Shown piece by piece: positions 11,986-39,850 of a DNA stretch of 64,000 bases (within the stretch, counting starts at the first letter, position 1; the number at the start of each line of letters is the position of its first letter). This DNA is from Gymnothorax reevesii (lineage: Eukaryota > Chordata > Actinopteri > Anguilliformes > Muraenidae), in assembly GCA_029721435.1 (NCBI GenBank), contig CM056573.1, forward strand, positions 2,746,001 through 2,810,000, written 5' to 3'. The notes under the pieces are model-generated. The model searched no databases. It was given only the letters and a program-made list of their open reading frames with translations, and was not told where the DNA came from. A program made the translations under genes and the position numbers.

Positions 11986-13602
11986 CAGGTGCTGGTCTAC
12001 GAATTAGAATAATTTGAAATAGTGCAATCGTAAAATTTTTAAATGCATTTTTTGTGCAGAAAGCAAATCAGGTGTTCACCGCGCCTGTCCTACTTGTTAG
12101 AGTAATCACAGAACTCGCTACCTGTAAAAAATTTGCTCAGCTGAGCTTTCCAAAAGGCCCATTTAGGCCATTTAACTGTGACACTGTTGTTTTATTGAAT
12201 TAGAATAATGGAGAAACCGTTTCACTGAATTAGAATAATTTTTATTATAATTAGAATCATAACTTTCTCAGTATTTTGTGGCTGCCCCCTTGGCTTGTAT
12301 GACTGCCTGAAGTCTCCGCGGCATCGATTTGACCAGCTTGTCGCAAGTTTCTGCACTCACTGCTTCCCAGGCTGTGGCGATGTTCTGCTTCAGTTGGTCC
12401 AGCGTAGTCGGCCTTCTGTCGCGAATTTTCCGCTTGACGATGGCCCAAAGGTTTTCAATGACTTTGAGGTCAGGCGAGTTGGCCGGCCATGCCAAAACTT
12501 CAAGCTGTTTTTCGGCGAACCAATCTTTGGTCGACTTTGGCGCATGAGCCGGTCCAAGATCCTTTTGAAATATGAAGTCTTCTTCGCCGAACTGTCCTTC
12601 AACAGTCGGAATCAGGAACGTTTCCAGAACATGTTGGTATACGGCAGCATTGACAGTCTTCTTGAGGAAGCAGAGTTTCCCTACACCCCGAGCGGACCAT
12701 AACGCTCTGGGGAAACTTGACGGATCTTTTCACGGCCTCGTGGTTGCAGGTTTCGCCACCACAACGCCAGACACGAGGACCTTGGTCACCGAAGGAGATG
12801 CAGAAGCGTGATTCGTCACTGAAGACCACTTTCTGCCAGTCTTCAGCAGGCCACTCGCCGTGTTCTTTGGCCCACTTCAGCCGTTTCTCCATTTGTTTCT
12901 TGTTCAGCATCGGTTTTACTGCTGGAACACGAGATTTGAAGCTGAGTTCGCGCAGACGACGGTAAGTGGTTGATCTCGAGACGTTATTGCTGGTCTGCTC
13001 GTTCCACAAGTCGCTGAGCTCAGAAATGGACTTGAACCGGTTGCTGACTGCGATCTTTCTCAGCTGCTTGTTGTCACGAGCAGAAGTTTTTCGGACGCCG
13101 GAACAGTTGGTGCTCTTGCTGCAGTCTTTCTTGAGAGCCTTGCAGACGAAATACTGGCTGATGCCGACCTGCTCAGCAATTTTAGTTTGGGTCAAGCCTT
13201 GTTGGCGAAGGGTTGAATTTGAGTCACTATTCCCGTTGAGAGGTCGCGCTGCTGACCCATGATTGATTTTACAACTTAGAAATTCTACTCAACCCTGACT
13301 TTATACTGCACAGTGAACACTCTTCACAGAAAACAAAAATTCAAGCACTTATTCTAGTTCAATGAAATGACTTATGAATTATTCTAATTCAGTGAAACAA
13401 CAGTGTCACAGTTAAATGGCCTAAATGGGCCTTTTGGAAAGCTCAGCTGAGCACATTTTTTCCAGGTAGCGAGTTCTGTAATTACTCTAACAAGTAGGAC
13501 AGGCGCGGTGAACACCTGATTTGCTTTCTGCACAAAAAATGCATCAAGAAAATTTAACAATTGCGCTATTTCAAATTCTTCTAATTCGTTGACCAGCACC
13601 TG
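11986..13602 (-). mobile_element. Complete Tc1-like transposon, 1617 bp, IR/DR ends
   Basis: Both ends read CAGGTGCTGGTC inward and each is flanked by TA (11984-11985, 13603-13604), the Tc1/mariner target duplication. The inverted repeats extend about 220 bp with roughly 93% identity by eye. Each arm holds three copies of an AATTAGAATAATT-like motif: one at the tip, and two about 200-230 bp inside, in mirror-image positions. This is the inverted-repeat/direct-repeat arrangement known from Sleeping Beauty-type fish elements, where the motifs bind transposase. The interior carries one transposase gene on the minus strand. Confidence 0.93.
12268..13260 (-). pseudogene. Tc1-family DDE transposase, two frameshifts
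   Basis: Encodes the transposase of the surrounding element. The ATG at 13258-13260 opens MGQQRDLS. The frame is lost between about 13200 and 13230 and resumes at LTQTKIAEQVGISQ, the N-terminal paired-like helix-turn-helix that binds the ends. The first catalytic Asp lies in VVFSDESRF. A second frameshift near 12695 (VMV-to-GVGKLCF) returns the reading to the original frame. There the second Asp (FQKDLGPAHAPKS) and the Glu (SPDLKVIENLW) follow with exactly 34 residues between them, the Tc1 D34E spacing. The stop follows GAATKY. No other stop lies between these lesions, so only two small indels separate the gene from an open frame of about 330 codons, the usual family length. Confidence 0.9.
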
Positions 13603-16593: not shown

Positions 16594-17395
16594 TCAATGG
16601 TGACTGGCATGAAAGTCTCTTATAAGATCCTTGTTCAGAATGTGCCTAGCTGGCACCCAAATGGGATGTTCAGGTTTGTAACCCTCCCAGTCAACGAGGT
16701 ACTGCAGTTCTCTACCTCGTCGACGGGAGTCCAGGAGGGCACGGACCGTGTAGGTTTCGCCTCCGTCGATGATCCGGGCGGGTGGTGGGGGATCAGGTCC
16801 TGATGACAGGTGGTGGGTTATAGCAGGTTTGATTTGTGACATGGAAAGTGGGGTGTATACGTCGCAAGGATAGGGGGAGACGGAGGCGAATGGCGGTGGG
16901 ACTTAGGACCCTCTCAATAGTAAAATGGCCCAGGTATTTGGGGAAAAGCTTACCCCCGTTACCTCTGAGGGGAATGTCCCTTGAAGACAACCAGACCCCC
17001 CACCCAGGTCGGTACGTGGGAGCAGCAGTGCGTTTCTTGTCGGCCTGTTCCTTCATTCAGATCGACCTGAGCAGGGCCTGGCGGGTGGCAATCCAGGTGC
17101 GTCTGCACCTAACGAACTCGCGGGCAGAGGGAACAGCTACCTCCTCCTCCTGGGACGGGAACAAGGGGGGCTGGTAGCCAAGACAGGCTTTGAAGGGGGA
17201 GACGCCAGAGGCTGCAGAGGTGTGACTGTTCAAGGCGTACTCCACCCATGGTAACTGATTGCTCCAGGAGAAGGGGTTCCTAATACACAGACATCTTAAC
17301 ACATTTTCCACACATTGGTTAGCTCGCTCTGTCTGGCCATTAGTCTGAGGATGGAAACCTGATGATAGACCAACTGAAGTGCCAAGAGCCTAAAA
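16594..17395 (-). pseudogene. Integrase C-terminal part and chromodomain, broken
   Basis: Continues the integrase after an in-frame stop at 17390. It carries [13 protein letters not shown], which supplies the catalytic Glu, then [21 protein letters not shown], typical of gypsy integrases. A stop at 17057 follows, then a GPF-type module ([17 protein letters not shown]). After a frameshift near 16830 comes a chromodomain ([19 protein letters not shown]) with the conserved aromatic/WEGY core. In chromoviruses this domain can direct integration to marked chromatin. The frame ends shortly after the chromodomain at 16594. Function is lost. Confidence 0.85.
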
Positions 17396-18574
17396 AAATA
17401 TTTTCCAAAAAAGTGCAATGAACTGAGGGTCGCGATCGGAAGTGATGTCGGTGGGTATTCCATGAAGCCTAATGACATGTTGTATAACAGGCTTGACGGT
17501 GTCTTGAGCGGAGGAGAGTTTAGTGAGGGGAACTAAGTGAACGGCTTTGGAGAATCTATCAACAATAGTGAGAATGGTGGTGTGGTGATTGGATGGGGGA
17601 AGGCCTGTGATAAAATCTAGTGCGATGTGAGACCAGGGACGGTGTGGTGTAGGAAGGGGCTGAGGTAAACCTTGAGGGGGCTGGTGAGAAGTCTTAGCCT
17701 GGGCACAGACCGAGCAAGCAGCTACGAAACCCTGGACATCTTGGGTCAGTTCTGGCCACGAAAACCTCTGAGGGATAAAGTTCTTGGTACGGCGAATCCC
17801 AGGGTGACAGGACAGCCTGGATGAGTGTCTCCATTCCAGGACCTTAGGGCGGAGGGCAGCTGGGACATATAAGCAGTTAGTCAGACAAGCACTGGGGGTA
17901 GCAGCATTGGCTTGGGTATTCCTGACCTCCTTCTCAAAATCTAAACATAGGGCATTGATAAACGCTTCTTGAGGGAGAATGGTATCCTGACTAGGTTCCT
18001 CTTCCTGGATCTCAAAACATCGAGATAGGGCATCAGGCTTGACATTTTTACTTCCCGGTCTATAGGCAATGTGGAAGTTAAAGCGGGAAAAGAATACTGC
18101 CCACCTGGCTTGTCGCGGGTTGAGTCTCTTGGCCGTCTGTAGGTACTCCAAGTTCTTGTGGTCTGTCCAGACAATGAAGGGTACTTTTGAGCCTTCCAGC
18201 CATTGTCTCCACTCCTCCAAGGCTAACTTCACCGCCAACAGCTCCCGATTGCCGATGTCATAATTTCTTTCAGCCGAGCTGAGGCGGCGAGAAAAGAAAG
18301 CACATGGATGGATCTTACCATCCTCCGTGGACCTCTGGGACAGGATGGCTCCAGCTCCAATATTGGAAGCGTCCACTTCAACAATGAACTGGAGTTCTGG
18401 GTTAGAGATGGTGAGAATGGGTGCAGAGGTGAAGCGGGCTTTCAAATCACAAAAGGCATTCTCAGCTTTTTCAGACCATAGGAATCTGGACTTGGAGGAG
18501 GTAAGGGCAGTGAGAGGAGCAGCAACAGAATTATAGTTCCGGATAAACCAGCGATAAAAGTTGGAAAAACCCAA
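17390..18574 (-). pseudogene. RNase H and integrase core of the sushi-type element
   Basis: Open stretch of ~394 codons, starting at the end of the RT thumb. RNase H follows with [23 protein letters not shown] and TDHKNLEYL, and ends PDALSR. The integrase zinc module ([12 protein letters not shown] to CSVCAQAK) and the core follow, with catalytic Asp residues in ALDFITGLP and TSDRDPQF. An in-frame stop at 17390 cuts the core before its Glu. It shares the frame of the RT segment upstream, separated from it only by a stop at 18611-18613. Part of a former single Pol. Confidence 0.88.
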
Positions 18575-18610
18575 AAATCGCTGGAGGGACTTATGGTCCT
18601 CTGGTCTGGG

Positions 18611-19240
18611 CTAATTGGTAACAGCTTCCACCTTTAGGGGGTCCATCCGAATGGTGCCTGGGGAGATGATGTAGCCCAAAAAGGTGGTGGTTTCAACAAA
18701 AAACTCACATTTCTCAGCTTTCAGGAAGAAGTGGTTTTCCAGGAGGCGACGAAGCACTTGGCGTACATGTTTGACATGGGCCTCCTGTATATCTCCATCG
18801 AGATATACAAATACAAACTTATTAATCATATCTCTTAACACATCGTTCACAAGATTTTGGAACACCGCTGGAACATTAGTAAGCCCGAAAGGAAGAACCA
18901 AGTACTCCCAGTGCCCAGTGGGAGTGTTGAAGGCGGTCTTCCATTCGTCCCCCTCTCTGATACGCACCAGGTGATATGCGTTACGCAGGTCGAGTTTGGT
19001 GAATAGCTTGGCTCCTTGCAGGAGATTAAAAGCGGTATTCATGAGTGGGAGTGGGTAGCGGTTCTTCACAGTTATCTCGTTGAGGCCCCGATAGTCAATA
19101 CATGGTCTTCAGGATCCGTCCTTCTTGGACACAGAAAAGAATCCGGCACCAGCAGGGGAAGATGATGGGCGAATAATGCCAGCAGCAAGTGACTCTGAAA
19201 GGTACTCCATGGCTTAGGTTTCTGGTCTGGAGAGGGAATA
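18611..19240 (-). pseudogene. Reverse transcriptase fragment, active site altered
   Basis: Encodes RT palm and fingers: [24 protein letters not shown] (first catalytic Asp), [14 protein letters not shown], and [12 protein letters not shown] where a YLDD box is expected. The second Asp of the YxDD box is displaced by Gly, which should abolish polymerisation. Sequence just upstream (to about 19240) still reads as the RT N-terminus ([11 protein letters not shown], then [10 protein letters not shown]) but with stops. The frame differs from the gag-protease frame, so a frameshift lies around 19070-19270. Confidence 0.87.
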
Positions 19241-19272
19241 GAGTCGGCCTCTAGGGGGCATTGTGCCTGGCT

Positions 19273-20361
19273 TCAGGTCAATGGAGCAGTAATAGGGTCG
19301 GTGAGGTGGTAAACTGGTGGTCCAGGACTTCGAGAACACCTCCTTGAGGTCATGAAACTCAAGGGGGACCTTCTCTTGGTCAGGTATCTCTTCTTGCGAT
19401 GGGCTGGCTTGAGGTTCGAGGGCGTTATGGAGGCACTGCTCAGGGAGCAGTTAGGGCTCCAACCCTTAACCTCATTGTTACGCCAGTCTATGTCAGGGAG
19501 ATGTTTAGCCATCCATGGATGGCCCAGAACAATGGGTGCATGAGGAGAATGTAACAAAAAGAGCTGAATGGTCTCCTGGTGGTTACCTGAGGCTTTGAGC
19601 TTGATGGGGCTGGTAACATGTGTAATCTGGGCTATTTTCTGGCCACTGAGCGAATTGGCCACCCGGTACGGAAAGATCTTTTCCATGGGAATGCCCCAGT
19701 CACGAGCAAGCTCCACATCAATCAGGTTCTCCTCAGCCCCAGTATCAATGAGAGTCATGGTGGATCTGCTCTCTCCTCCCCACTCCAGGATAACTGGGAG
19801 GCACGTACAGCTCTTAGTCTCCCGTACCGGCGTCACCCCAATTATTGCTTCTCTCTGGGCACCAGGGGAACTCTTCATCTTGTTGGGGCACTGAGCAATG
19901 TGGTGTCCCCCCTTGCCGCAGTAAAAGCAGGCCCCTTCTCGTCGGCAACAATCCTTCTCCTCCATAGGAACGCAGGTGCGGCCCAGTTGCATGGGTTCTG
20001 GCTCAGGAGGACTACCGCCAGTAGGGGATGGTAGAGGTGGAGTGCTCTGGAGGAGTGGGTTAGGTCGTTTGCGGGTAGCGAAGCGTCTGCATTCTTCCAA
20101 TCGTGAATCTACGCGAATGGCCAAGTCAACCAAGTCATCCAAATCCTCCGGTAACTCACGGGAAACTAGCTCATCTTTTAAAGATTCGGAAGGGCCGTTA
20201 AAAAAGAAATCATACAAGGCTCTACGTCCCCACCTGCTGCTGGTAGCCAGAGTCTGGAAATGGATGGCGTAGTCGGCCACGGAACGGCCACCTTGTCGAA
20301 TGCGCAGAATTTCTCGTTCCGCCTCATGACCCAGCTTTGTGCAGTGGAAGATACGCCTCAT
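19273..20361 (-). pseudogene. Gag C-terminal part with zinc knuckle, and protease
   Basis: 362 open codons. The first part is the end of the gag capsid region (RELPEDLDDLVDLAIRVDSR). Then come a proline-rich linker, a CCHC knuckle (CFYCGKGGHHIAQC) for RNA binding, and an aspartic protease with the LIDTGAEENLID active site and a VLGHPWM segment. It is in the same frame as the gag start upstream, from which a single stop at 20407-20409 separates it. Confidence 0.87.
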
Positions 20362-20406
20362 CTCCTCACCCAGCAGACCAAACGAATGTACGCAGGATAG
20401 ATCTGC

Positions 20407-20823
20407 TTACCATGCAGCCGTAGCCCACTGCTTGGCCCTTCCCGTCAGTTGCGTGATGATAAATGCAACTCGAGCACGTTCGGAGGGGAATGATGAGGGC
20501 TGTAGGCTGAAGATTAGCTCACACTGGGTCAGGAAAGCAGGACATGCTCCCGGGTTGCCGTCGTTCCTCTCAGGCGGTGGCAGGCGTGGCTCGCAGACCA
20601 GCAGTGATGGAGCGGAGGGAGGAGCAGGCGTGGTGTGGACCGCAGGTTGGGGAGCATGCAGCAGCTGTGAGTCTTGCAGAGAGCGAGTGAGATCCGCCAT
20701 CTGGAGGCTCATTGTCTGCATGTGCTGCATGAGAGCGCGAAGCTGACGCTCCTGGAACTCGAGCTGAATTCCCTGTTCTTTCACTGCCTCCTGCAGTGGC
20801 TGGTTTATCGCTGGCTCCGTCAT
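20407..20823 (-). pseudogene. Gag N-terminal part of the sushi-type element
   Basis: The ATG at 20821-20823 (MTEPAINQPLQ) lies only a few nt after the 5' LTR, within or beside the primer site. It opens a gag with a short coiled-coil region (EFQERQLRALMQHMQTM), a proline-rich stretch, and a capsid segment (AFLTQCELIFSLQPSSFPSE, then TGRAKQWATA). A stop at 20407-20409 interrupts an otherwise continuous frame into the zinc-knuckle part. The layout matches vertebrate sushi Gag, the source of domesticated PEG10/RTL genes. This copy is a transposon, not one of those genes. Confidence 0.85.
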
Positions 20824-20824
20824 G

Positions 20825-20834
20825 GTCAGATCGT
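20825..20834 (-). other. Putative self-priming primer binding site
   Basis: Minus strand ACGATCTGAC, at the LTR/internal junction. It is perfectly complementary over 10 nt to GTCAGATCGT at 21157-21166 in the same LTR, which lies 32 nt after the TATA box and so near the expected RNA 5' end. Tf1 of fission yeast primes with its own RNA 5' end in this way. No tRNA-like TGG primer site is present. Confidence 0.65.
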
Positions 20835-21969
20835 AATGTTGTGATTTACAAATGAACCAATAGCGAAAACCAGATGAATGCAAAAAGGAGGCTTTATTTC
20901 TGAAGGGGGAAACCCCCCAACAGAGCTGGCAACAGTACACTGTCCGCAATCCAAAAATAGTATCCAAAGGGCGAAATCCAGAATCGTAACCAGGGCACAA
21001 ATAAAAAAATCCGTAGTCAGGCAAAAATAAGTCGATACACAGGAATGCGGTACAATACAGGGAATAGGCAAAGCTCGGCAGTCAGGCGGTCCAGTCAGAA
21101 AGATAAATCACTAAGAATCGAGGCGAAAACAAACGTGGCACAGGAAGCTAGGAAGAACGATCTGACAGCTGGAAGTGACTAAACAGACATCTTATATACA
21201 CATCCGGGTGAAACACATGACCAGGGCGAACAGGTGCAATCAATGATACAAACATCTGGAGTGACACATGAGGAATTATCTAATTACATGAATTTGGCTA
21301 CTGCCAAAATGCAGACAGGGATCATGAGACAAACCTACGTACAAACAACAGCTCCGGTCGAGGGGTACTAAAAGCGCAGAGTCTAAAGAAATGGAAAGCA
21401 TGAGATATAAGAGGAAAACTGCAGCAGAGATAATTAGGGATAGGCAAGGAGGCGGAGATTAGAATTGAGCGAATGCTAAGAGGTTGTTAGTCAATTAGTA
21501 TGTGCAGCTGTACAATCCCGAGTGCATGTTAGTAAGTTAGTAAAAATATACAATGTTAATCTTGTTTAGTAATTATCGAAAACAACAAACTGTTAGTATG
21601 GATTAGTAGATAGTAAAAGAGAGGGGAAGGGAGCACACGAGATAATTAAGGAAGATTGAAAACCCAGAAACCAATAAATCACCCGAATGAGTGGCACGCA
21701 AGACAAGGGACCGTGAGCAAAGACCTACACAAGACAAGACAGGGTAAACAAAGTGCAAAGCGAGGCATGGCAGAATAAACATGATCAGGAATCTAGGGTA
21801 CTGAGGCAAAGACAAAATAGTAAAACAGGACATGAAAAATAATAACTCAAGAATCTAACATAATCAAAACACAATACACAGTCCAAGAATAGTCAAGGGG
21901 CAGGCAGTGGTCGCTACGCACTGAAATCAATCAACATGGCTACGCCAGGCACAGAATTTAAACATAACA
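20832..21969 (-). mobile_element. 5' LTR of the sushi-type element
   Basis: Read on the minus strand it runs from TGTTATGTTTAAATTCTG (21969 downward) to about CATTACG at 20832. It aligns with the other three sushi-type LTR copies in this window. The TATATAA box is at 21192-21198 and the presumed R start at 21166. The exact 3' boundary is uncertain by a few bases because the final CA of the family appears as CG. Confidence 0.8.
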
Positions 21970-23000: not shown

Positions 23001-23059
23001 AATTATTTAAACTCGGGACTTGGGGGGCAGGGAGGTTAGTGAGTGTTACACACAGGGAA

Positions 23060-26036
23060 ATGCAGACTGCCCCGATGGAGGCTGACGGCGTTACATGCAC
23101 TACTGATAATATACTTTTAAAGCAACAAAGCGTAGTCGAGGCCTTGAAGCAGCGGCCACATGGGAAATCAAGGGGGAAGAGCAGTAGTAATAACCTGAAA
23201 CGTTTTTACTTAAATGCAAGAAGCATAAAATATAAATTTCCTGAGCTTGAAGCTGTTATAATTAGTGAGGGCTATGACATAGTTGGGATTACGGAGACAT
23301 GGCTAAGTGAAGAGAATGAATATAATATAGAAGGTTATAAGCTCTTTAGGAAGGATAGATGTAATAGGCGAGGAGGGGGCGTAGCAATCTATGTGAATGA
23401 AAACATAAATGTAGAGGAAATTCCCCAAATTGAACATTCCTTGCCCTGTGAAGATATCTGGGCCAGGCTCATTGGCAAGCACGAGACAGGTTTAAACATA
23501 GGTGTATGCTATCAACCATCAGCTTTGGGCAGTACAATCAATGAAATGCTTTTTAGGAGGATTACCCAAGCTTAAAGAGGTGGAGGGACTATTATTATGG
23601 GAGACTTAAATTATCCTGGTATCAATTGGAAAATGGTGAAAGGACAGGGTAGGGGGAAGGAAGAATTTCTAGATGTTATGAATGATCATTTCTTGGTGCA
23701 GTATGTTAATAAACCTACAAAAGAGAAGGCAATTATCGACTTAGTGCTCTGTAATGACCCAGATAGAATTAGCAATGTTGAGGTACTGGAGCCACTTGGG
23801 ACAAGTGATCACCCTGCTGCTAATTTTGATGCTTCATGGGAAGTTAAAAAGGTCTATTCAAAAACAAAAATTTTCAATTTTAGGCCAGCAAAATTTGACA
23901 GGATGTGCTCATATCTAAGTGAAATAAAAAGGGAGACACTCTTGGACTGTGAGTCCGTAAATGAGACGTGGAAAAGATTTAAGGGGGTTTTACTTGAATC
24001 ACAACGCAGATTCATTCCAAAGGTGTCCAAAAGTAAGCTGAAAAAGCAGAATCCTCAGTGGATGACTAGAAGTATTCGTAGGATTTTGAGGGAAAAGAGG
24101 AATCTTTATAAGATTTACATAAAGGATAACAATGAGAATACTAAGGCTGAATACTGTAAAATGCAGGCTGTGGTCAAAAAAGAGCTGAGGAATGCTAGAA
24201 GACTGTATGAAAGACAAATTGCAGAGGGGGCAAAAACTAGCCCTAAGCGCTTCTTTCAGTACTGTAGCAGAAAAAGGAAAGTGTAGGTTAAGTGCATAAA
24301 GAATAAAAACGGATCGCTGCTATATGATAACAAGCATATTGCAGATGCCTTAAACAGTTACTCTTTTGAGAATTTTGCCTCAGAGGGGGTCTTTATTTGG
24401 CCAGAGGGCATGTTTATTGCTCAAGACTATTTAGCAGAAATTGAGGTTCGGAATAACGAAGTATTAGACAAGTTGCATAAACTAAAAGCAGATAAGGCGG
24501 CGGGTCCTGATGGCTTATATCCTAGAGTGCTCAGGGAAGTTGGCGGGATCATCTTTAAGCCGCTATCTACCATCTTCAGGCGGTCTTTAGGAACAGGAGA
24601 AATACCAAATGATTGGAAACAGGGCAATATAATACCAATATACAAGAAAGTGGACCGTACCGAGCCAGGAAATTACAGGCCAGTCAGTTTAACTTTCATT
24701 GCGTGCAAAAAATTGGAATCTATCATAAACGATGAGCTGGACTTATTTCTTGAACAGAACAGTATCTCGAGGGATAGCCAACATGGATTTCGTAAGGTAA
24801 GGTCATGCCTGACAAACATTCTGGAATTTATTGAAGAGGTCACCAGGACTTATGACCAGAGCAGGGCTTATGACATCATATACTTGGATTTTCAGAAAGC
24901 ATTCGATTCAGTACACATAAGAGACTAATTTTTAGTTGAGCTCCATTGGAGTTACAGGAGGTATTCTGGAATGGATTCAAAACTGGTTACAGGAAAGAAC
25001 ACAAAGTTTGGTGGTCAGTGGTATCTCATCTGAGCTGGGTATGGTGGGGAGTGGCGTCCCCCAGGGATCGGTGTTGGGGCCCTTACTGTTCCTCACCTAC
25101 ATTAATGACCTTGATGGGAATATTGAGAGCAGATTGGTTAAAGTTGCAGATGATACTAAATTGGGGGGTTTGGCAAATATTTTAGGGTCCACTAAAGTGA
25201 TTCAGAATGATTTGGATAGAATCCAGAATTGGGCAGAAATGTGGCAAATGAAATTTAATTTAGCAAAATGTAAAGCTGTACATGTAGGTAATAAAAACAT
25301 TAGACGGGATTACTTCATGGGAGGTTAAAAACTGGAATGTGCAGTACATGAGAAAGATCTGGGAGTGATTGTTGACCAAACCCTCACAGGCTCTAGCCAT
25401 TGTGCCGTAGCAGTTAAAAAAGCCAAACAGATGCTGGGATACTTTGCCAAAAGTATTGAGTACAAATCTAAGGAGGTGATTCTTCTTTTGTACAACACGT
25501 TCGTTAGACCACATCTGGAGTATTGTGAACAGTTCTGGGGACCATACTTTAAGAAAGATATAGAGGCTCTAGAGAAAGTTCAGAGAAGAGCCACTAAGCT
25601 TATTCCAGGTATAAAAGATGAAAGCTATGAGAAGAGGCTGAAGATCCTTAATCTCTTTAGTCCAAGGAAAAGGAGACTAAGGAGTGATTTGATTGATGTC
25701 TTTATATATGTTAAAGGGATTAACAAAGTGAATTATGTAGGATTCCTTCGACCAAGTGTTGCGAGTAGAACTCGGGGTCACAAATAGAGGTTGACCGAAA
25801 GTAAATTTAACACTGATATTCGGAAATATTTCTTCACCCAAAGAGTCATTTCAATGTGGAATAGTTTGCCTGACCATATTGTTGAGGCAGAGACCTTGGG
25901 GGTTTTTAAGAGCAGGCTTGACTTAAACCTAGATACCATTGAGTCAGAGTATCTGAAGGGATATATTCACAATAGTTTTTTGCTGACTGGGTTGCAGTCT
26001 GGTGACTGGATCACAGGGACGCAGGTGATATTTTGA
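23060..26036 (+). pseudogene. CR1-like ORF2: endonuclease and reverse transcriptase
   Basis: The first ATG is at 23060-23062 (MQTAPMEADG). Endonuclease motifs follow: LNARSIKYKF, GITETWLSEE (catalytic Glu), GVAIYVNENI, MGDLNYPGINW and TSDHPAANF. The RT runs from KADKAAGPDGL through NYRPVSL, YLDFQKAFDSV and GVPQGSVLGPLL to the active site KVADDTKLGG, with both Asp kept. The C-terminal region is of CR1 type (RTRGHK region, SMWNSLPDHIV). In-frame stops lie at 23573-23575, 24284-24286, 25326-25328 and 25785-25787, and a frameshift near 24928. About 990 codons in total, close to the normal ORF2 size. Not functional, but only lightly decayed. Confidence 0.9.
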
Positions 26037-33833: not shown

Positions 33834-33838
33834 ACAGG

Positions 33839-34346
33839 TGTTATGGCCCCAATTTGTTATTACATTTATAACACAACAGCAACAGCAAGGGACGACAAAC
33901 ACAGTTTCAACAACTAAAACACATTTAATTTTTAACAAAGACCAAGACTAATAACAACCTACAACTAAAGACCAAGATTGATAAATAAGAAAAAAACAGA
34001 AATAATTACAGTCCCTTCTTGGTGGCGTGGCTTGGTGATGTCCTGGATGAAGAAAATGCTCAAACACAGGCAAAGAAATCCACAAAAGAAACTACACAGG
34101 TCTTGAACAGAAATGACAGGTCTGGTCACACGTATCCTTCTTCTTGCAATTTCTCCTACTCCTTTACTGTCTCAATTCTTTTCCTTATATACTCTCTTTC
34201 AGACCCCACCCACATTTAGACCTCTTTTTTTTAACTTTCTGAGACTTGCCCCAGACATGTTCAGGACATGTCTAAACATGACTCCAGTCTGAGCTTTACA
34301 AAAAAAAGGTAAATACTGCCATCTAGTGGCCTATATTCACATTACA
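33839..34346 (-). mobile_element. 3' LTR of the Gmr1-like element
   Basis: 508 bp, bounded on the plus strand by TGTTATGG and CATTACA. Contains a TATATAA box (34185-34191 on the minus strand) and ATTAAA in the downstream part. Nearly identical to the 5' LTR. Open frames within it are spurious. Confidence 0.95.
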
Positions 34347-34366
34347 CCTCCATTCCAAAAGGGAAA
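34347..34366 (-). other. Polypurine tract of the Gmr1-like element
   Basis: Minus strand sequence ending TTTTGGAATGGAGG abuts the 3' LTR (which begins TGTAATG). It is the expected place for plus-strand priming, though less pure in purines than usual. Confidence 0.6.
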
Positions 34367-34473: not shown

Positions 34474-37400
34474 TCAAACACGGGATAAGCAATCAGCAAT
34501 TACATTGTCTGTACCCTTCACATGCTTAATTTCCAAGTCAAACTCCTGTAAAATCAAACTCCAATTCAACAATCTCCGATTCTTGTTTTTCATCTTACTC
34601 AAAAACATTAACGGATTGTGGTCAGTGTACACAATCATTGGCTTTTGTTCTGAACAAACATAAACCTCAAAGTGTTGTAAAGAAAGGACCAGAGCCAACA
34701 GCTCCTTCTCTATTGTGGAATAGTTCCTTTGGTGGCGATTGAACTTCCTGGAGAAGTATGCCACGGGATGCTCAATGTCATCAGAGTCACTTCTCTGTAG
34801 GAGCACAGATCCACAAGCTTGGTCGCTAGCATCGACCGCGATGGAGAACGGTTTGTTGAAGTCAGGAGATTTGAGCACGGGGAAGTGACACAGCAGAGAC
34901 TTCAGGCGATCGAAGACTCTCTGGCATGCATCATCCCAAGTGAACTTTACACCTTTCTTCAGTTGGTTAGTTAGACTGAGAGCAATCTCAGCAAAGTTCT
35001 TGCAGAACTTGCGGTAGTACCCGATCATTCCAAGGAAGCGGCGCAAAGCTTTTTTGTTGTCAGGAACGGGAAAGTCCATGATGGCTTGGACTTTAGCATT
35101 TATGGGTGCCACCTTACCCTGGCCTATGACGTAGCCAAGATAGGTGACAGTAGCACAACCAAAGTCACTCTTGTTCAGGTGAACAGTCAGGTTAGCCTGT
35201 GTCAGGCGCTGGAACAACGTCTCTACATCTTTTAGATGTTCTTCCCAGGAGTCACTCCATGTGATCAGGTCATCGATGTACGCACCCGTGTGTGGCAATC
35301 CGGCGATTGTAGACTGTATCATCCTTTGGAACGTGGCTGGGGCATTTTTCATGCCAAAGGGTAGGACTTCATACTGGTACAATCCAGATGGTGTGGCAAA
35401 AGCAGAGATGCTCTTGGCCCTCTCAGTTAAAGGCACACACCAATAACCCTTCAATAAATCAATCTTGGTCAGAAACTTTGCTTGCCCTACACTATCAATA
35501 CAATCATCAATCCTAGGTATTGGAAACACATCAGTTCTAGTTACAGCATTGACTTTGCGATAATCTGTACAGAATCTAGTACTTCCATCAGGTTTTGGAA
35601 CTAGCACACAGGGTGAACTCCAATCTGAGTTGGAGGGTCTGATAATATCATGTTTTAACATGTACTCAACCTCTTTCTCAGCAATCTTTCTCTTTTCAGG
35701 ATTCATCCGGTATGGATGCTGTTTTATTGGTTTGGCATCACCAACATCTACATCATGAGAGGCTATAGTAACTCTCTTTGGAACATCAGGAAACAAATCC
35801 TCATATTTCTTGATCAACCTTTCAAACTGATCTCTCTGTGAGGGTTCTAAGTGCTGGAGTTTTACATCAAGATTTTGCAACACTTCAGAATTTGACAATT
35901 TACATGAAAGAACTTCAGCTTTAATTCTTGGTTCATCATCTTGAAACTCCCCCTCATCTTCACACGTTTCGACCATTGGAGAATCTGAAGTGACAGCTGC
36001 AACCCTAGCATTTCTGTCATGATAAGGCTTTAGCATGTTAATATGACACAATTGTTTTAGTTTTCTCCTATCTGGAGTCTTCACAATGTAATTGAGATCA
36101 TTGAGTTTTGTCAGAATTTCATAAGGACCATGAAATCTAGCCTGCAATGGATTGGACTGCAAGGGAAACAACACAAGGACCTTGTCTCCTGGTTTAAACT
36201 CACGGCTTCTAGCCTTATGATCATACCAAGTTTTCATTTTTCCCTGACTTGATTTCAAGTTATCTTTGGCAAGGTCACAAGCTGCACGCAATCTTTCCTT
36301 GAACTTGCTAACATAGTCTAACAGACTGATTTGCGGCTCTTCCTCTTGCCATTGTTCACTCAATAATAGCAAAGGTCCTCTCACTTCATGACCAAACACT
36401 AGCTCAAATGGACTGAATCCAGTAGACTCCTGCACTGCTTCTCTAGCTGCAAACAACAGCAAATGAACCCCTTCATCCCAGTCTCTCTCATGGTCATAAC
36501 AATAAGTCCTCATCATTGTCTTGAGAGTGGAATGAAACCGCTCTAAGGCACCCTGACTTTCTGGATGATAGGCACTAGAAAGAATCTGTTTTGCACCTAG
36601 TTCATACACAACCTGCTGAAACAATCCTGAAGTGAAATTGCTACCTTGGTCTGACTGAATTTCCCTGGGAAGACCAAACAACGTGAAGAACTTTATCAAA
36701 GCCTTCGAGATTGCAGTTGCCTTGATGTTACGTAGAGGTATGGCTTCGGGGAATCTGGTAGATGCACACATGATTGTCAACAAATACTGATTTCCAGATC
36801 TAGTCTTGGGTAATGGACCAACGCAATCAACAATGACCCTAGAGAATGGCTCCCCAAATGCTGGGATAGGCTGCAATGGAGCTACAGGTGAGTCTAACTG
36901 GTGTTTTCCAACTACCTGACAAGTGTGACAGGTTTTGCAAAAGTTGGAAACGTCTTTCCGAAGCCCAGGCCAAAAGAAGTGTTTCATGATCTTATCAACA
37001 GTCTTGTTAACACCAAGATGACCTCCTAAAGGTAGACTATGAGCCATTGTTAAGATCTCATTCCTGTAGACCTTCGGAACAACAATTTGCCTGACCACTG
37101 CCCAATCTGCATTGGCAGGGATATCAGGAGGGCGCCACTTCCGCATCAACACACCATCCTTGAGATAATACCCAACTGGAACTGCGTCTATTTCTTTATC
37201 AGGAAGGGCTCTCCTCTTTAGTACACAAATTTCAGGATCATTAGTTTGCTCCTCAATCAACCGCTTTCTGGACAGAGACAAGTCTCCAGACACATCAGAA
37301 TCACCAGACCCATCCGGCTGGCTGAATAGAGAACTGATAAAAGTATCTGTTAAGTCCTCAAACGGAGAAACCATAGTAGGCCAATCAGAGTCATGAGGCG

Positions 37401-39225
37401 AACCACCTGAGTCCTGACTATTCAATGTACTGGACGGCACCACAACATCATCTTCTTTAGCCTTCTTGGCCATAGCACGAGTCACTGCGCAAGAAGGATA
37501 CAGAGATGGGTCCTCATCCCCATTTTCAGTGCTCGGCTGTGAAGTAAGATGTACAGGGGGAACTACTTTGCCCCCAGCCAGGTCATTGCCTAGCAACAGA
37601 GAAACACCTTTGATAGGTAGACTTGACATAAGTCCCACCTTTACCTGTCCTGTAACTAAATCTGACTTCAAGAATATAGAGCGCAGGGGTACAGATACAG
37701 TCCTCCCTTCAATACCTTGTACAAGTATGAAATCCCCTGAAGCGGTCTCATCACGTAACTCCAAGGAGTCCATCAACAAAAGTGACTGAGAAGCTCCGGT
37801 ATCCCTTAGGATATATATGGGGACAGGAGTAGTATGCTCATTCAGAGCCACAAATCCCTCTGACACAAATGGAAGAAATTCCTCCCTCACAAAGTCAGCT
37901 GTATTAGGCTTTTTAGCCCCACAAGAAGCAGGCAATTTAGCAGATTGGTTATCTACTACAGGGGTTTCTAACCTTGTTTTCACAAAGGCATTTGGTTTGG
38001 CATCCTTTTCTTTTTCTTTCTTAGCTTTAAGGAACCAACAGTTAGTTGTAACATGACCAGATTTCTTGCAATAACTGCAAACTATACCACTTTTGTCACT
38101 GTCAGCTTTCACACTTTGATCAGACCTGTTACTGGATTTCTGAGCATCATCACCAGATTCGTCTTTGTCTTTGGGTGAGGAATCTTGGGTATCACCGTAA
38201 CCCTTTTTCTGAAATTGGGACCATTTATTGTTACTGCTAGACTGAAATTTGGACTTATGAGTGAGAACATATTCATCTGCAAATTTGGCAGCTGATTGCA
38301 AGTTCAGTGCTTGCTTCTCATTAAGGTAGGTCTTAACATCATCCTTAACACAGTTCTTGAATTCTTCAACTAACACCATCTCTTTTAGTGAGTTGAAATC
38401 ATCCTTGACCTCCATAGAAGTACACCAGCGCTCAAAGCAAACCTGCTTTTCATTAGCAAATTCAACATAAGTCTGATTTTCAGATTTCTTCAGACCTCTG
38501 AATTTCTGTCGGTAAGCCTCTGGAACCAACTCATAAGCTCTCATAATAACCTTTTTGACAACCTCATAATCAGAGGAATCATCTGCAGACAAAGCCGAAT
38601 AGGCTTGTTGAGCTTTACCCTTGAGGACAGTTTGCAACATCAGAGGCCAGTGTTCCTTTGGCCACTGGCAACTCTTTGCTACCTTTTCAAAACACTGGAA
38701 ATAGTTGTCAACATCCTTTTCCGAAAATGGAGGCACCAGTTTTACCTCCTGGCTAGCCCGAAATTTATTTTCAGTTTGAATTTTTATTTTTAGTTGCTCC
38801 ATTTGGAGTCTTTCTTCTCTATCGAATTTCTCTAATTCAAAATCTCTCTGTCTTGCAAATTTTTCTAACTCAAATTCTCTTTGTTTTTCTTCTCTTGCTA
38901 ATTTTTCTAACTCAAACTGCCTTTGTTTTTCGTTTTCTTCCCTCTCAAATTCCCTTTCTTTTTCTCTTTCCTCCCTTTCAATCTCTAGCATTTTTAATTT
39001 AAGTTCCATTTCTATATTTGGATTTTCCACTGGAAACTGTTCCAGATCTCCTGGTGCAAACACATTTTCATCAATGTAATATTCAACTATCTCTCTAGCC
39101 AGTCTTGCTTTTCGCATGGCTGGTTTTACCTCTGTCAACTCCAACTGTCTGCAAATTTCTAGCAGTTCTGTCTTTTTAAAAGACTTCAAAACCCCTACGG
39201 TTGGTGATGCCAAGAAATCATCCAT
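34474..39225 (-). CDS. gag-pol: Intact Gag-PR-IN-RT-RNaseH polyprotein, Gmr1-like
   Basis: 1583 codons without a stop. The ATG at 39225 has a strong context (GCAATGG); a further upstream in-frame GTG is less likely. Order by residue: N-terminal helical domain 1-60; charged coiled coil 70-155 (repeated EREE/FELEK); capsid domain ~165-325, whose second half resembles SCAN domains; CCHC knuckle C383-C396; protease D475-T-G-A; integrase zinc module ~729-769 and core D800, D859, E895 (35 residues between the last two); GPY module ~1032; RT D1256 and YIDD 1316-1319; RNase H D1465, E1508, D1535, D1578. All these catalytic residues are present. It drives copying of the element: Gag forms particles, protease cleaves, RT/RNase H make cDNA and integrase inserts it. 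Gag and Pol share one frame, so another way of setting their ratio is implied. No env. Confidence 0.95.
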   Translation of the reverse strand: MDDFLASPTVGVLKSFKKTELLEICRQLELTEVKPAMRKARLAREIVEYYIDENVFAPGDLEQFPVENPNIEMELKLKMLEIEREEREKEREFEREENEKQRQFELEKLAREEKQREFELEKFARQRDFELEKFDREERLQMEQLKIKIQTENKFRASQEVKLVPPFSEKDVDNYFQCFEKVAKSCQWPKEHWPLMLQTVLKGKAQQAYSALSADDSSDYEVVKKVIMRAYELVPEAYRQKFRGLKKSENQTYVEFANEKQVCFERWCTSMEVKDDFNSLKEMVLVEEFKNCVKDDVKTYLNEKQALNLQSAAKFADEYVLTHKSKFQSSSNNKWSQFQKKGYGDTQDSSPKDKDESGDDAQKSSNRSDQSVKADSDKSGIVCSYCKKSGHVTTNCWFLKAKKEKEKDAKPNAFVKTRLETPVVDNQSAKLPASCGAKKPNTADFVREEFLPFVSEGFVALNEHTTPVPIYILRDTGASQSLLLMDSLELRDETASGDFILVQGIEGRTVSVPLRSIFLKSDLVTGQVKVGLMSSLPIKGVSLLLGNDLAGGKVVPPVHLTSQPSTENGDEDPSLYPSCAVTRAMAKKAKEDDVVVPSSTLNSQDSGGSPHDSDWPTMVSPFEDLTDTFISSLFSQPDGSGDSDVSGDLSLSRKRLIEEQTNDPEICVLKRRALPDKEIDAVPVGYYLKDGVLMRKWRPPDIPANADWAVVRQIVVPKVYRNEILTMAHSLPLGGHLGVNKTVDKIMKHFFWPGLRKDVSNFCKTCHTCQVVGKHQLDSPVAPLQPIPAFGEPFSRVIVDCVGPLPKTRSGNQYLLTIMCASTRFPEAIPLRNIKATAISKALIKFFTLFGLPREIQSDQGSNFTSGLFQQVVYELGAKQILSSAYHPESQGALERFHSTLKTMMRTYCYDHERDWDEGVHLLLFAAREAVQESTGFSPFELVFGHEVRGPLLLLSEQWQEEEPQISLLDYVSKFKERLRAACDLAKDNLKSSQGKMKTWYDHKARSREFKPGDKVLVLFPLQSNPLQARFHGPYEILTKLNDLNYIVKTPDRRKLKQLCHINMLKPYHDRNARVAAVTSDSPMVETCEDEGEFQDDEPRIKAEVLSCKLSNSEVLQNLDVKLQHLEPSQRDQFERLIKKYEDLFPDVPKRVTIASHDVDVGDAKPIKQHPYRMNPEKRKIAEKEVEYMLKHDIIRPSNSDWSSPCVLVPKPDGSTRFCTDYRKVNAVTRTDVFPIPRIDDCIDSVGQAKFLTKIDLLKGYWCVPLTERAKSISAFATPSGLYQYEVLPFGMKNAPATFQRMIQSTIAGLPHTGAYIDDLITWSDSWEEHLKDVETLFQRLTQANLTVHLNKSDFGCATVTYLGYVIGQGKVAPINAKVQAIMDFPVPDNKKALRRFLGMIGYYRKFCKNFAEIALSLTNQLKKGVKFTWDDACQRVFDRLKSLLCHFPVLKSPDFNKPFSIAVDASDQACGSVLLQRSDSDDIEHPVAYFSRKFNRHQRNYSTIEKELLALVLSLQHFEVYVCSEQKPMIVYTDHNPLMFLSKMKNKNRRLLNWSLILQEFDLEIKHVKGTDNVIADCLSRV

Positions 39226-39317: not shown

Positions 39318-39335
39318 ATCCCGGACGAGCCCCCA
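39318..39335 (-). other. Primer binding site, tRNA-Pro type
   Basis: Minus strand TGGGGGCTCGTCCGGGAT, 18 nt, three nt after the 5' LTR. It equals the well-known tRNA-Pro primer site of murine gammaretroviruses and is complementary to the vertebrate tRNA-Pro 3' end. Confidence 0.92.
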
Positions 39336-39338
39336 ATT

Positions 39339-39846
39339 TGTTATGGCCCCAATTTGTTATTACATTTATAACACAACAGCAACAGCAAGGGACGACAAAC
39401 ACAGTTTCAACAACTAAAACACATTTAATTTTTAACAAAGACCAAGACTAATAACAACCTACAACTAAAGACCAAGATTGATAAATAAGAAAAAAACAGA
39501 AATAATTACAGTCCCTTCTTGGTGGGGTGGCTTGGTGATGTCCTGGATGAAGAAAATGCTCAAACACAGGCAAAGAAATCCACAAAAGAAACTACACAGG
39601 TCTTGAACAGAAATGACAGGTCTGGTCACACGTATCCTTCTTCTTGCAATTTCTCCTACTCCTTTACTGTCTCAATTCTTTTCCTTATATACTCTCTTTC
39701 AGACCCCACCCACATTTAGACCTCTTTTTTTTAACTTTCTGAGACTTGCCCCAGACATGTTCAGGACATGTCTAAACATGACTCCAGTCTGAGCTTTACA
39801 AAAAAAAGGTAAATACTGCCATCTAGTGGCCTATATTCACATTACA
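39339..39846 (-). mobile_element. 5' LTR of the Gmr1-like element
   Basis: 508 bp, the promoter LTR for the minus-strand element, with TATATAA at 39685-39691. Differs from the 3' LTR at one position by eye (G at 39526 versus C at 34026). Confidence 0.95.
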
Positions 39847-39850
39847 CAGG

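What the first reader, a model, noticed from the sequence alone, without database searches (positions are those of the whole stretch)
34474..39225. Gypsy retrotransposon with integrase upstream of reverse transcriptase
The single frame runs Gag, protease, integrase (D800, D859, E895), then RT (YIDD 1316-1319) and RNase H. Ordinary Ty3/gypsy elements have RT and RNase H before integrase; integrase-first is the Ty1/copia order. This is known for the Gmr1-like clade of deuterostome gypsy elements. A complete copy with every catalytic residue present is a good reference for the clade and for how its polyprotein is processed.
Basis: partly seen in the sequence, partly recalled or inferred. Interest (0 to 1): 0.8.

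Follow-up and report, generated by a model that had tools for sequence, protein, structure and literature searches.

The report
Gmr1-like gypsy element, rewritten primer site
This is a young, complete jumping element of a known family whose enzymes sit in an unusual order; most sampled sister copies carry a three-letter insert in the site where host tRNA starts copying, which seems to be repeatedly erased by copying from the tRNA.

Summary
One open frame (34474-39225, minus strand, 1583 codons) encodes Gag, protease, integrase, RT and RNase H in that order, between 508-bp LTRs (39339-39846, 33839-34346; 1 mismatch), with a 4-bp target duplication and a tRNA-Pro primer site. RT and integrase trees both give one integrase-first clade inside Ty3/gypsy, apart from copia; 116 of 120 listed homologues share the order. 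This is the known Gmr1-like kind; the order itself is ordinary.

The new part lies in the family. The window copy has the exact 18-nt tRNA-Pro site, but 47 of 57 readable copies from the same genome carry a 3-nt insert in its middle. Genome-wide, 4,479 sites have three extra bases and 1,514 the exact 18-mer. Insert-free sites are scattered over the copy tree (9 changes; one clade rejected), without a linked haplotype. The best reading is repeated rewriting of the site from the tRNA primer, as in retroviruses; a review read here says Ty1 and Ty3 do not do this. Why the insert stays common is open.

The parts
39339..39846 (-). 5' LTR, 508 bp, TG...CA
   Evidence: one mismatch to the 3' LTR
33839..34346 (-). 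3' LTR, 508 bp
39847..39850 (-). target site duplication CCTG, 5' side
33835..33838 (-). target site duplication CCTG, 3' side
39318..39335 (-). primer binding site TGGGGGCTCGTCCGGGAT (exact tRNA-Pro form), 3 nt after the LTR
   Evidence: the same 18-mer occurs in a murine leukaemia virus paper that also holds 'proline' and 'primer binding site' (search listing only); host tRNA-Pro-like 3' arms match it
34474..39225 (-). single Gag-Pol frame, 1583 aa
38818..38964 (-). 33/42-nt repeats in the charged coiled-coil-like part of Gag
   Evidence: length differs among copies
38251..38523 (-). SCAN-like capsid C-terminal domain of Gag
   Evidence: Pfam PF02023, E 1.2e-11
38038..38079 (-). CCHC zinc knuckle, aa 383-396
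   Evidence: motif
37531..37893 (-). aspartic protease region, DTGA at aa 475-478
36910..37080 (-). integrase zinc-binding domain H2C2
   Evidence: PF17921, E 1.6e-21
36562..36849 (-). integrase core as matched by Pfam; D800 and D859 lie inside it, E895 (36541-36543) just beyond
   Evidence: PF00665, E 4.8e-11; residues
36025..36129 (-). integrase C-terminal GPY/F-type module
   Evidence: PF22938, E 1.4e-11; GPY motif (the name GPY/F is recalled)
35125..35601 (-). reverse transcriptase, YIDD 1316-1319
   Evidence: PF00078, E 1e-30; PDB matches
34540..34863 (-). RNase H
   Evidence: PF17917, E 1.2e-35
34347..34356 (-). purine-rich stretch GGAATGGAGG next to the 3' LTR, likely polypurine tract
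   Evidence: read; inference

Best explanation
The window holds a recently inserted, complete Gmr1-like Ty3/gypsy LTR retrotransposon. Shown by sequence: two LTRs identical at 507 of 508 bases; one frame encoding Gag (SCAN-type capsid, zinc knuckle), protease, a gypsy-type integrase, RT and RNase H; a 4-bp target duplication; a primer site complementary to tRNA-Pro. Inferred: the integrase moved once, in the ancestor of the clade, from behind RNase H to before RT, with no copia donor. Also inferred: during plus-strand synthesis the RT copies the 3' end of the tRNA into the new primer site, as retroviruses do. Most sampled copies in this genome carry a 3-nt insert in the middle of the site, which should still pair as 9 + 9 bp around a bulge. 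Copying of the tRNA tail then yields an insert-free site in a minority of new copies, the window copy among them.
For: Order and domains. Gypsy-type, not copia-type, integrase: Pfam H2C2 and p58_C match, while none of the modules PF13976, PF25597 or PF22936 seen in copia rows was matched at E 0.1; integrase tree 100/99, RT tree 97/100. Insertion marks: of 20 copies fetched whole, 18 gave two full LTRs and 16 of these a 4-bp duplication; 10 of 18 had no LTR mismatch. Primer site: 47 of 57 readable copies (61 examined, 4 unreadable) have the insert, 10 do not. On a careful gag-protease tree with the site left out (55 copies) the 10 insert-free copies need 9 changes, all 9 forced by starred branches, and one clade is rejected (AU p 1e-125); the earlier quick tree of 57 copies also needed 9, of which 4 were forced. 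On a quick tree of flanks only, 9 changes (4 forced) against 9.0 in shuffles, and one set of identical flanks spans both states. Separate gains of the same insert at the same place are less likely than one insert lost repeatedly to the exact tRNA complement. One insert-free copy (L041) ends GGGAG instead of GGGAT, which fits another host tRNA-Pro-like form, TTCAACTCCCGG (the unseen base before CCA is taken as C from recall). Predicted pairing: -40.9 kcal/mol exact, -35.3 with the insert.
Against: Only 10 of 57 are insert-free, fewer than the half that simple strand segregation predicts (p 7.5e-7, copies not independent); genome-wide at most 1,514 exact 18-mers beside 4,479 sites with three extra bases (other elements with this site would be counted too). 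Two insert-free copies are sisters (95/91), so such copies can leave offspring. Short-tract template switching between co-packaged RNAs is not excluded. At three leader positions (+30, +38, +46 from the site's start) the minor base occurs only in insert copies (9, 7 and 8 of 47 against 0 of 10), a weak hint of linkage. The isodecoder clue is one copy. Whether the host has a tRNA gene with the insert was asked and never answered. Most conventional-order rows of the trees come from one pseudoscorpion; the branches that nest the clade within gypsy have moderate support.
Confidence: 0.85

Rival explanations
1. The scatter of insert-free primer sites comes from recombination between co-packaged RNAs or gene conversion between copies, not from copying the tRNA.
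For: Copies are much alike and numerous, so exchange is easy; recombination would also scatter the two states. Three leader positions have a minor base only in insert copies.
Against: In the last 400 nt of the LTR and about 180 nt behind the site, no variable column differs in frequency by more than 0.5 between the two states, apart from the insert itself and an end artefact of fixed-length cutting; the flank tree shows no clustering. Tracts would have to be very short each time.
Confidence: 0.15
2. The element is a chimera that took integrase from a Ty1/copia element.
For: Copia elements have integrase before RT.
Against: Integrase has the gypsy-type modules, its best PDB match is Ty3, and the integrase tree separates it from the two copia rows (copia side 100/100).
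Confidence: 0.02
3. The order arose by rearrangement in this copy alone.
For: None found.
Against: 116 of 120 listed homologues have integrase first. In the same genome 127 of 127 scored matches cover the whole RT query, and the 18 copies that could be measured span 5.9-6.1 kb.
Confidence: 0.01
4. The insert is kept by selection because it weakens targeting by tRNA fragments or other factors that read the exact site.
For: The review PMC7472051 argues this for mouse ETn, MusD and IAP, whose commonest sites also depart from the perfect one (section 4.3); here sites with three extra bases outnumber exact ones about 3 to 1.
Against: A single successful insert-bearing master lineage plus a low rewriting rate explains the same counts; tip lengths of insert-free and insert copies do not differ (median 0.0050 vs 0.0054, p 0.44). 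No small-RNA data.
Confidence: 0.3

Closest known systems
Gmr1-like Ty3/gypsy clade (Goodwin and Poulter 2002; seen here only as a reference in PMC2774666)
   Same: Integrase before RT within a gypsy lineage; SCAN domain in Gag (PMC4131045 reports it in over 50% of Gmr elements only); fused Gag-Pol of 1506-1634 aa in four Gmr families of Tetraodontiformes (PMC11117352)
   Different: A large family in which most sampled copies have a 3-nt insert in the primer site; the listings showed no such report (most of those papers were not read)
Mouse ETn/MusD and IAP retroelements (PMC7472051)
   Same: Commonest primer site is imperfect; for ETn and MusD perfect sites lie across the whole tree and reversion by copying of the tRNA is proposed
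   Different: Those are placed in Retroviridae, ETn and MusD using tRNA-Lys; this is a gypsy element with a tRNA-Pro site and an insert
Ty3 of yeast
   Same: Best PDB match of the integrase (7q5b) and second of RT-RNase H; the first there, 4ol8, has nearly the same letters
   Different: RT before integrase; PMC7472051 states that Ty1 and Ty3 strictly inherit their primer site
Ty1/copia
   Same: Integrase-RT-RNase H order
   Different: RT and integrase sequences fall elsewhere

Membership tests
Gmr1-like clade | Integrase upstream of RT and RNase H in one pol | tested here: met
Gmr1-like clade | RT and integrase belong to Ty3/gypsy | tested here: met
Gmr1-like clade | Clusters with other integrase-first elements | tested here: met
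   97/100 for RT, 100/99 for integrase; 14 homologues plus the window after thinning from 108
Gmr1-like clade | RT groups with the named Gmr1 element of cod | not tested
   no named Gmr1 sequence was at hand
Gmr1-like clade | SCAN-related capsid domain in Gag | tested here: met
   PF02023 E 1.2e-11
Ty1/copia | copia-type RT (PF07727) and integrase modules | tested here: not met
Retrovirus | env gene | tested here: not met
   no further frame of 150 aa or more in the element; 127 nt between frame end and 3' LTR
Retrovirus-like inheritance of the primer site | New copies acquire the tRNA sequence | tested here: inconclusive
   scattered insert-free copies and one isodecoder match support it; no direct assay

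The most novel reading that the evidence does not exclude
A Ty3/gypsy family has spread thousands of copies with a split primer site that it inherits through its RNA, while its RT copies the host tRNA-Pro tail and repeatedly restores the exact site; the split form prevails because it escapes host factors that read the exact site. It would be a gypsy case of the priming-versus-silencing conflict proposed for mouse retroviruses.
Probability: 0.25. Interest if true: 0.7.

Novelty: new variant of a known kind. Interest (0 to 1): 0.5.

Why it matters
The domain order is known, so this copy mainly adds a clean, dated example. The primer-site polymorphism matters more: thousands of sites in one genome may record how often the tRNA primer is copied into new DNA by a gypsy RT, a point on which yeast elements and retroviruses are said to differ. 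The counts can also test whether an imperfect site is favoured.

Tried and rejected
Relatives in viral contigs: none confirmed. Rfam and tRNA scans of the window: nothing. Gag by sequence against the PDB: nothing at E 0.001. Copia chimera and one-copy rearrangement: rejected. A Gag search for shorter relatives was not used further. Four of 61 copies were dropped before the primer-site count (L043 no gag match; L024, L030, L038 no LTR end found), two more short rows before the careful tree, and L017 and L024 before the LTR comparison. The nearest-copy distances are inflated by about 3 between insert-free and insert copies because of fixed-length cutting; avoids this. One of the 116 integrase-first homologues, P0015, has only a 27-residue integrase match. 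Of the conventional set (119 new proteins, named Cordylochernes scorpioides in the listing) I used 160 RT-RNase H-integrase units, 23 after thinning, and did not count exceptions. An earlier count said that six insert-free copies have a single insert-bearing sister; the right number is five.

Full report
What is there. The frame 34474-39225 on the minus strand is open from ATG to stop for 1583 codons. Scanned as five separate pieces, it gives SCAN (Gag), Integrase_H2C2, rve, Integrase_p58_C, RVT_1 and RT_RNaseH in that order. Catalytic residues are in place: D800, D859, E895 in integrase and YIDD 1316-1319 in RT; RNase H residues D1465, E1506 and D1535 are judged by eye from the Ty3-type alignment. 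The protease has no Pfam match. It carries DTGA at 475-478, invariant R-D-T-G and L-G-N-D columns among 15 aligned rows, and a predicted fold of modest confidence (mean pLDDT 71). Nearly all of the 50 listed Foldseek PDB matches are named aspartic proteases, HIV-1, simian foamy virus and EIAV proteases among them; the best E-value is 2.7e-3 and none of 519 reaches 0.001.

Element ends. Two 508-bp LTRs differ at one base. They start TG, end CA, and are flanked by a 4-bp duplication CCTG. The primer site lies 3 nt behind the 5' LTR. With 127 nt between the frame's end and the 3' LTR, no second integrase and no env fits there.

Kinship. Ty3 is the best PDB match of the integrase and the second of RT-RNase H, the first being an RT chain with nearly the same letters. 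Of 120 listed homologues, 116 have integrase before RT (one of them by a 27-residue match only), three have no integrase match and one is a pseudoscorpion fusion with RT first. After thinning, 14 homologues and the window form one clade in the RT tree (97/100) and in the integrase tree (100/99). Conventional-order elements, Ty3 (RT tree only), the window's own second gypsy element and two copia rows lie outside it. Agreement of the two trees argues for one relocation of the lineage's own integrase rather than capture from copia. This is what the literature calls Gmr1-like. PMC2774666 speaks of the Ty1/Copia-like integrase order of the Gmr1 lineage (passages). PMC3587641 and PMC8220671 describe the same order and report crustacean and annelid members (passages). 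The SCAN link is known too: PMC3424704, PMC4592553 and PMC4131045 (passages).

The family in this genome. The RT piece finds 127 scored matches at 99-100% identity in a 2.17-Gb assembly, a lower bound. Of 20 copies fetched whole, 18 gave two full LTRs: 10 with no mismatch, 4 with one, 1 with two, 2 with four, 1 with 14 plus gaps; two were partial. A 4-bp duplication was seen in 16 of 18; the other two gave 2 bp and a 6-bp AT run. So these copies are mostly young.

Primer site. The window copy has TGGGGGCTCGTCCGGGAT. Of 61 copies examined (window plus L009-L068), 57 were readable: 47 carry three extra bases after the ninth (46 AAG, 1 TAG) and 10 do not, 9 of them with the exact 18-mer and L041 with another last base. 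Exact-pattern counts in the whole assembly are 4,479 with three extra bases and 1,514 without, with none for the reversed patterns; both counts would include other elements that use the same tRNA. Among the roughly 100 rows listed all but two read AAG; the two others read GTC.

Are the insert-free sites a lineage or repeated events? On a careful tree of 55 copies from gag to protease, site excluded, the 10 insert-free copies need 9 changes, all 9 forced by starred branches; shuffled labels need 9.4 on average, and holding them as one clade is rejected (the bootstrap had not fully settled). The quick tree of 57 also needed 9, of which 4 were forced. On a quick tree of about 300 nt before the site plus the leader behind it, again 9 changes (4 forced) against 9.0, with one set of identical flanks spanning both states. 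Five insert-free copies have a single insert-bearing sister and two are sisters of each other. Three leader positions have a minor base only in insert copies (9, 7 and 8 of 47 against 0 of 10); I read these as marks of insert sublineages, but they are the nearest thing to linkage in the data. The change is otherwise confined to the site and recurs. Host tRNA-Pro-like 3' arms of three forms (TTCAAAT, TTCAACT, TTCAATT before CCCGGACGAGCC) are among the listed rows of 372 matches, most of the listed ones in a tandem array on contig C20. L041 ends GGGAG, as the TTCAACT form predicts. I infer that the tRNA tail is copied into new DNA and that mixed ends are resolved either way.

How this sits with the literature. 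[quoted passage not shown] The present family looks like the mouse elements although it is a gypsy element. The insert-free fraction (10 of 57, interval 0.10-0.29) is below one half. This may mean biased repair of the bulge, incomplete copying, or poorer success of insert-free copies; the data here do not decide. The listings of searches for such an insert or for tRNA copying in gypsy elements showed none, within an open-licence library and with most listed papers unread.

What is shown and what is inferred. Shown: domain order, ends, kinship, mostly young copies, two site forms, their scatter and the lack of clear linkage. Inferred: tRNA copying, single origin of the insert, one relocation of integrase. 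Open: why the insert prevails, whether a host tRNA carries it, and how the polyprotein is cut.

Noticed in passing
17390-21024, minus strand: A second gypsy element, in broken frames, with the ordinary order: DUF4939-type Gag, protease, RT, RNase H, integrase. It served as a control in the trees.
   Followed up: partly
12599-13195, minus strand: Tc1/mariner-type transposase piece (HTH_Tnp_Tc3_2).
   Followed up: no
23039-24928, plus strand: LINE-like endonuclease and RT pieces (Exo_endo_phos, Exo_endo_phos_2, RVT_1).
   Followed up: no
38818-38964 and the same part of L009-L068: Repeats in the charged part of Gag; the start of the conserved VPPF motif ranges from residue 160 to 200 in the 47 of 57 copies whose frame is open up to it.
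   Followed up: partly
G000:C11:1210194-1249609: Four copies 9-17 kb apart, frames of 1475, 1475, 1315 and 1475 aa, probably a local duplication; the first (L020) has TAG in place of AAG in the primer site.
   Followed up: no
G000:C20:29.87-29.97 Mb: Dense tandem array of tRNA-Pro-like 3' arms.
   Followed up: no
P0072, P0101: Records named Campylobacter sp. and Candidatus Thiodiazotropha hold integrase-first, SCAN-Gag polyproteins, most likely animal DNA in bacterial assemblies.
   Followed up: no
G000:C1:45626130 and 45631622: Primer sites with GTC as the three extra bases instead of AAG, 5.5 kb apart.
   Followed up: no
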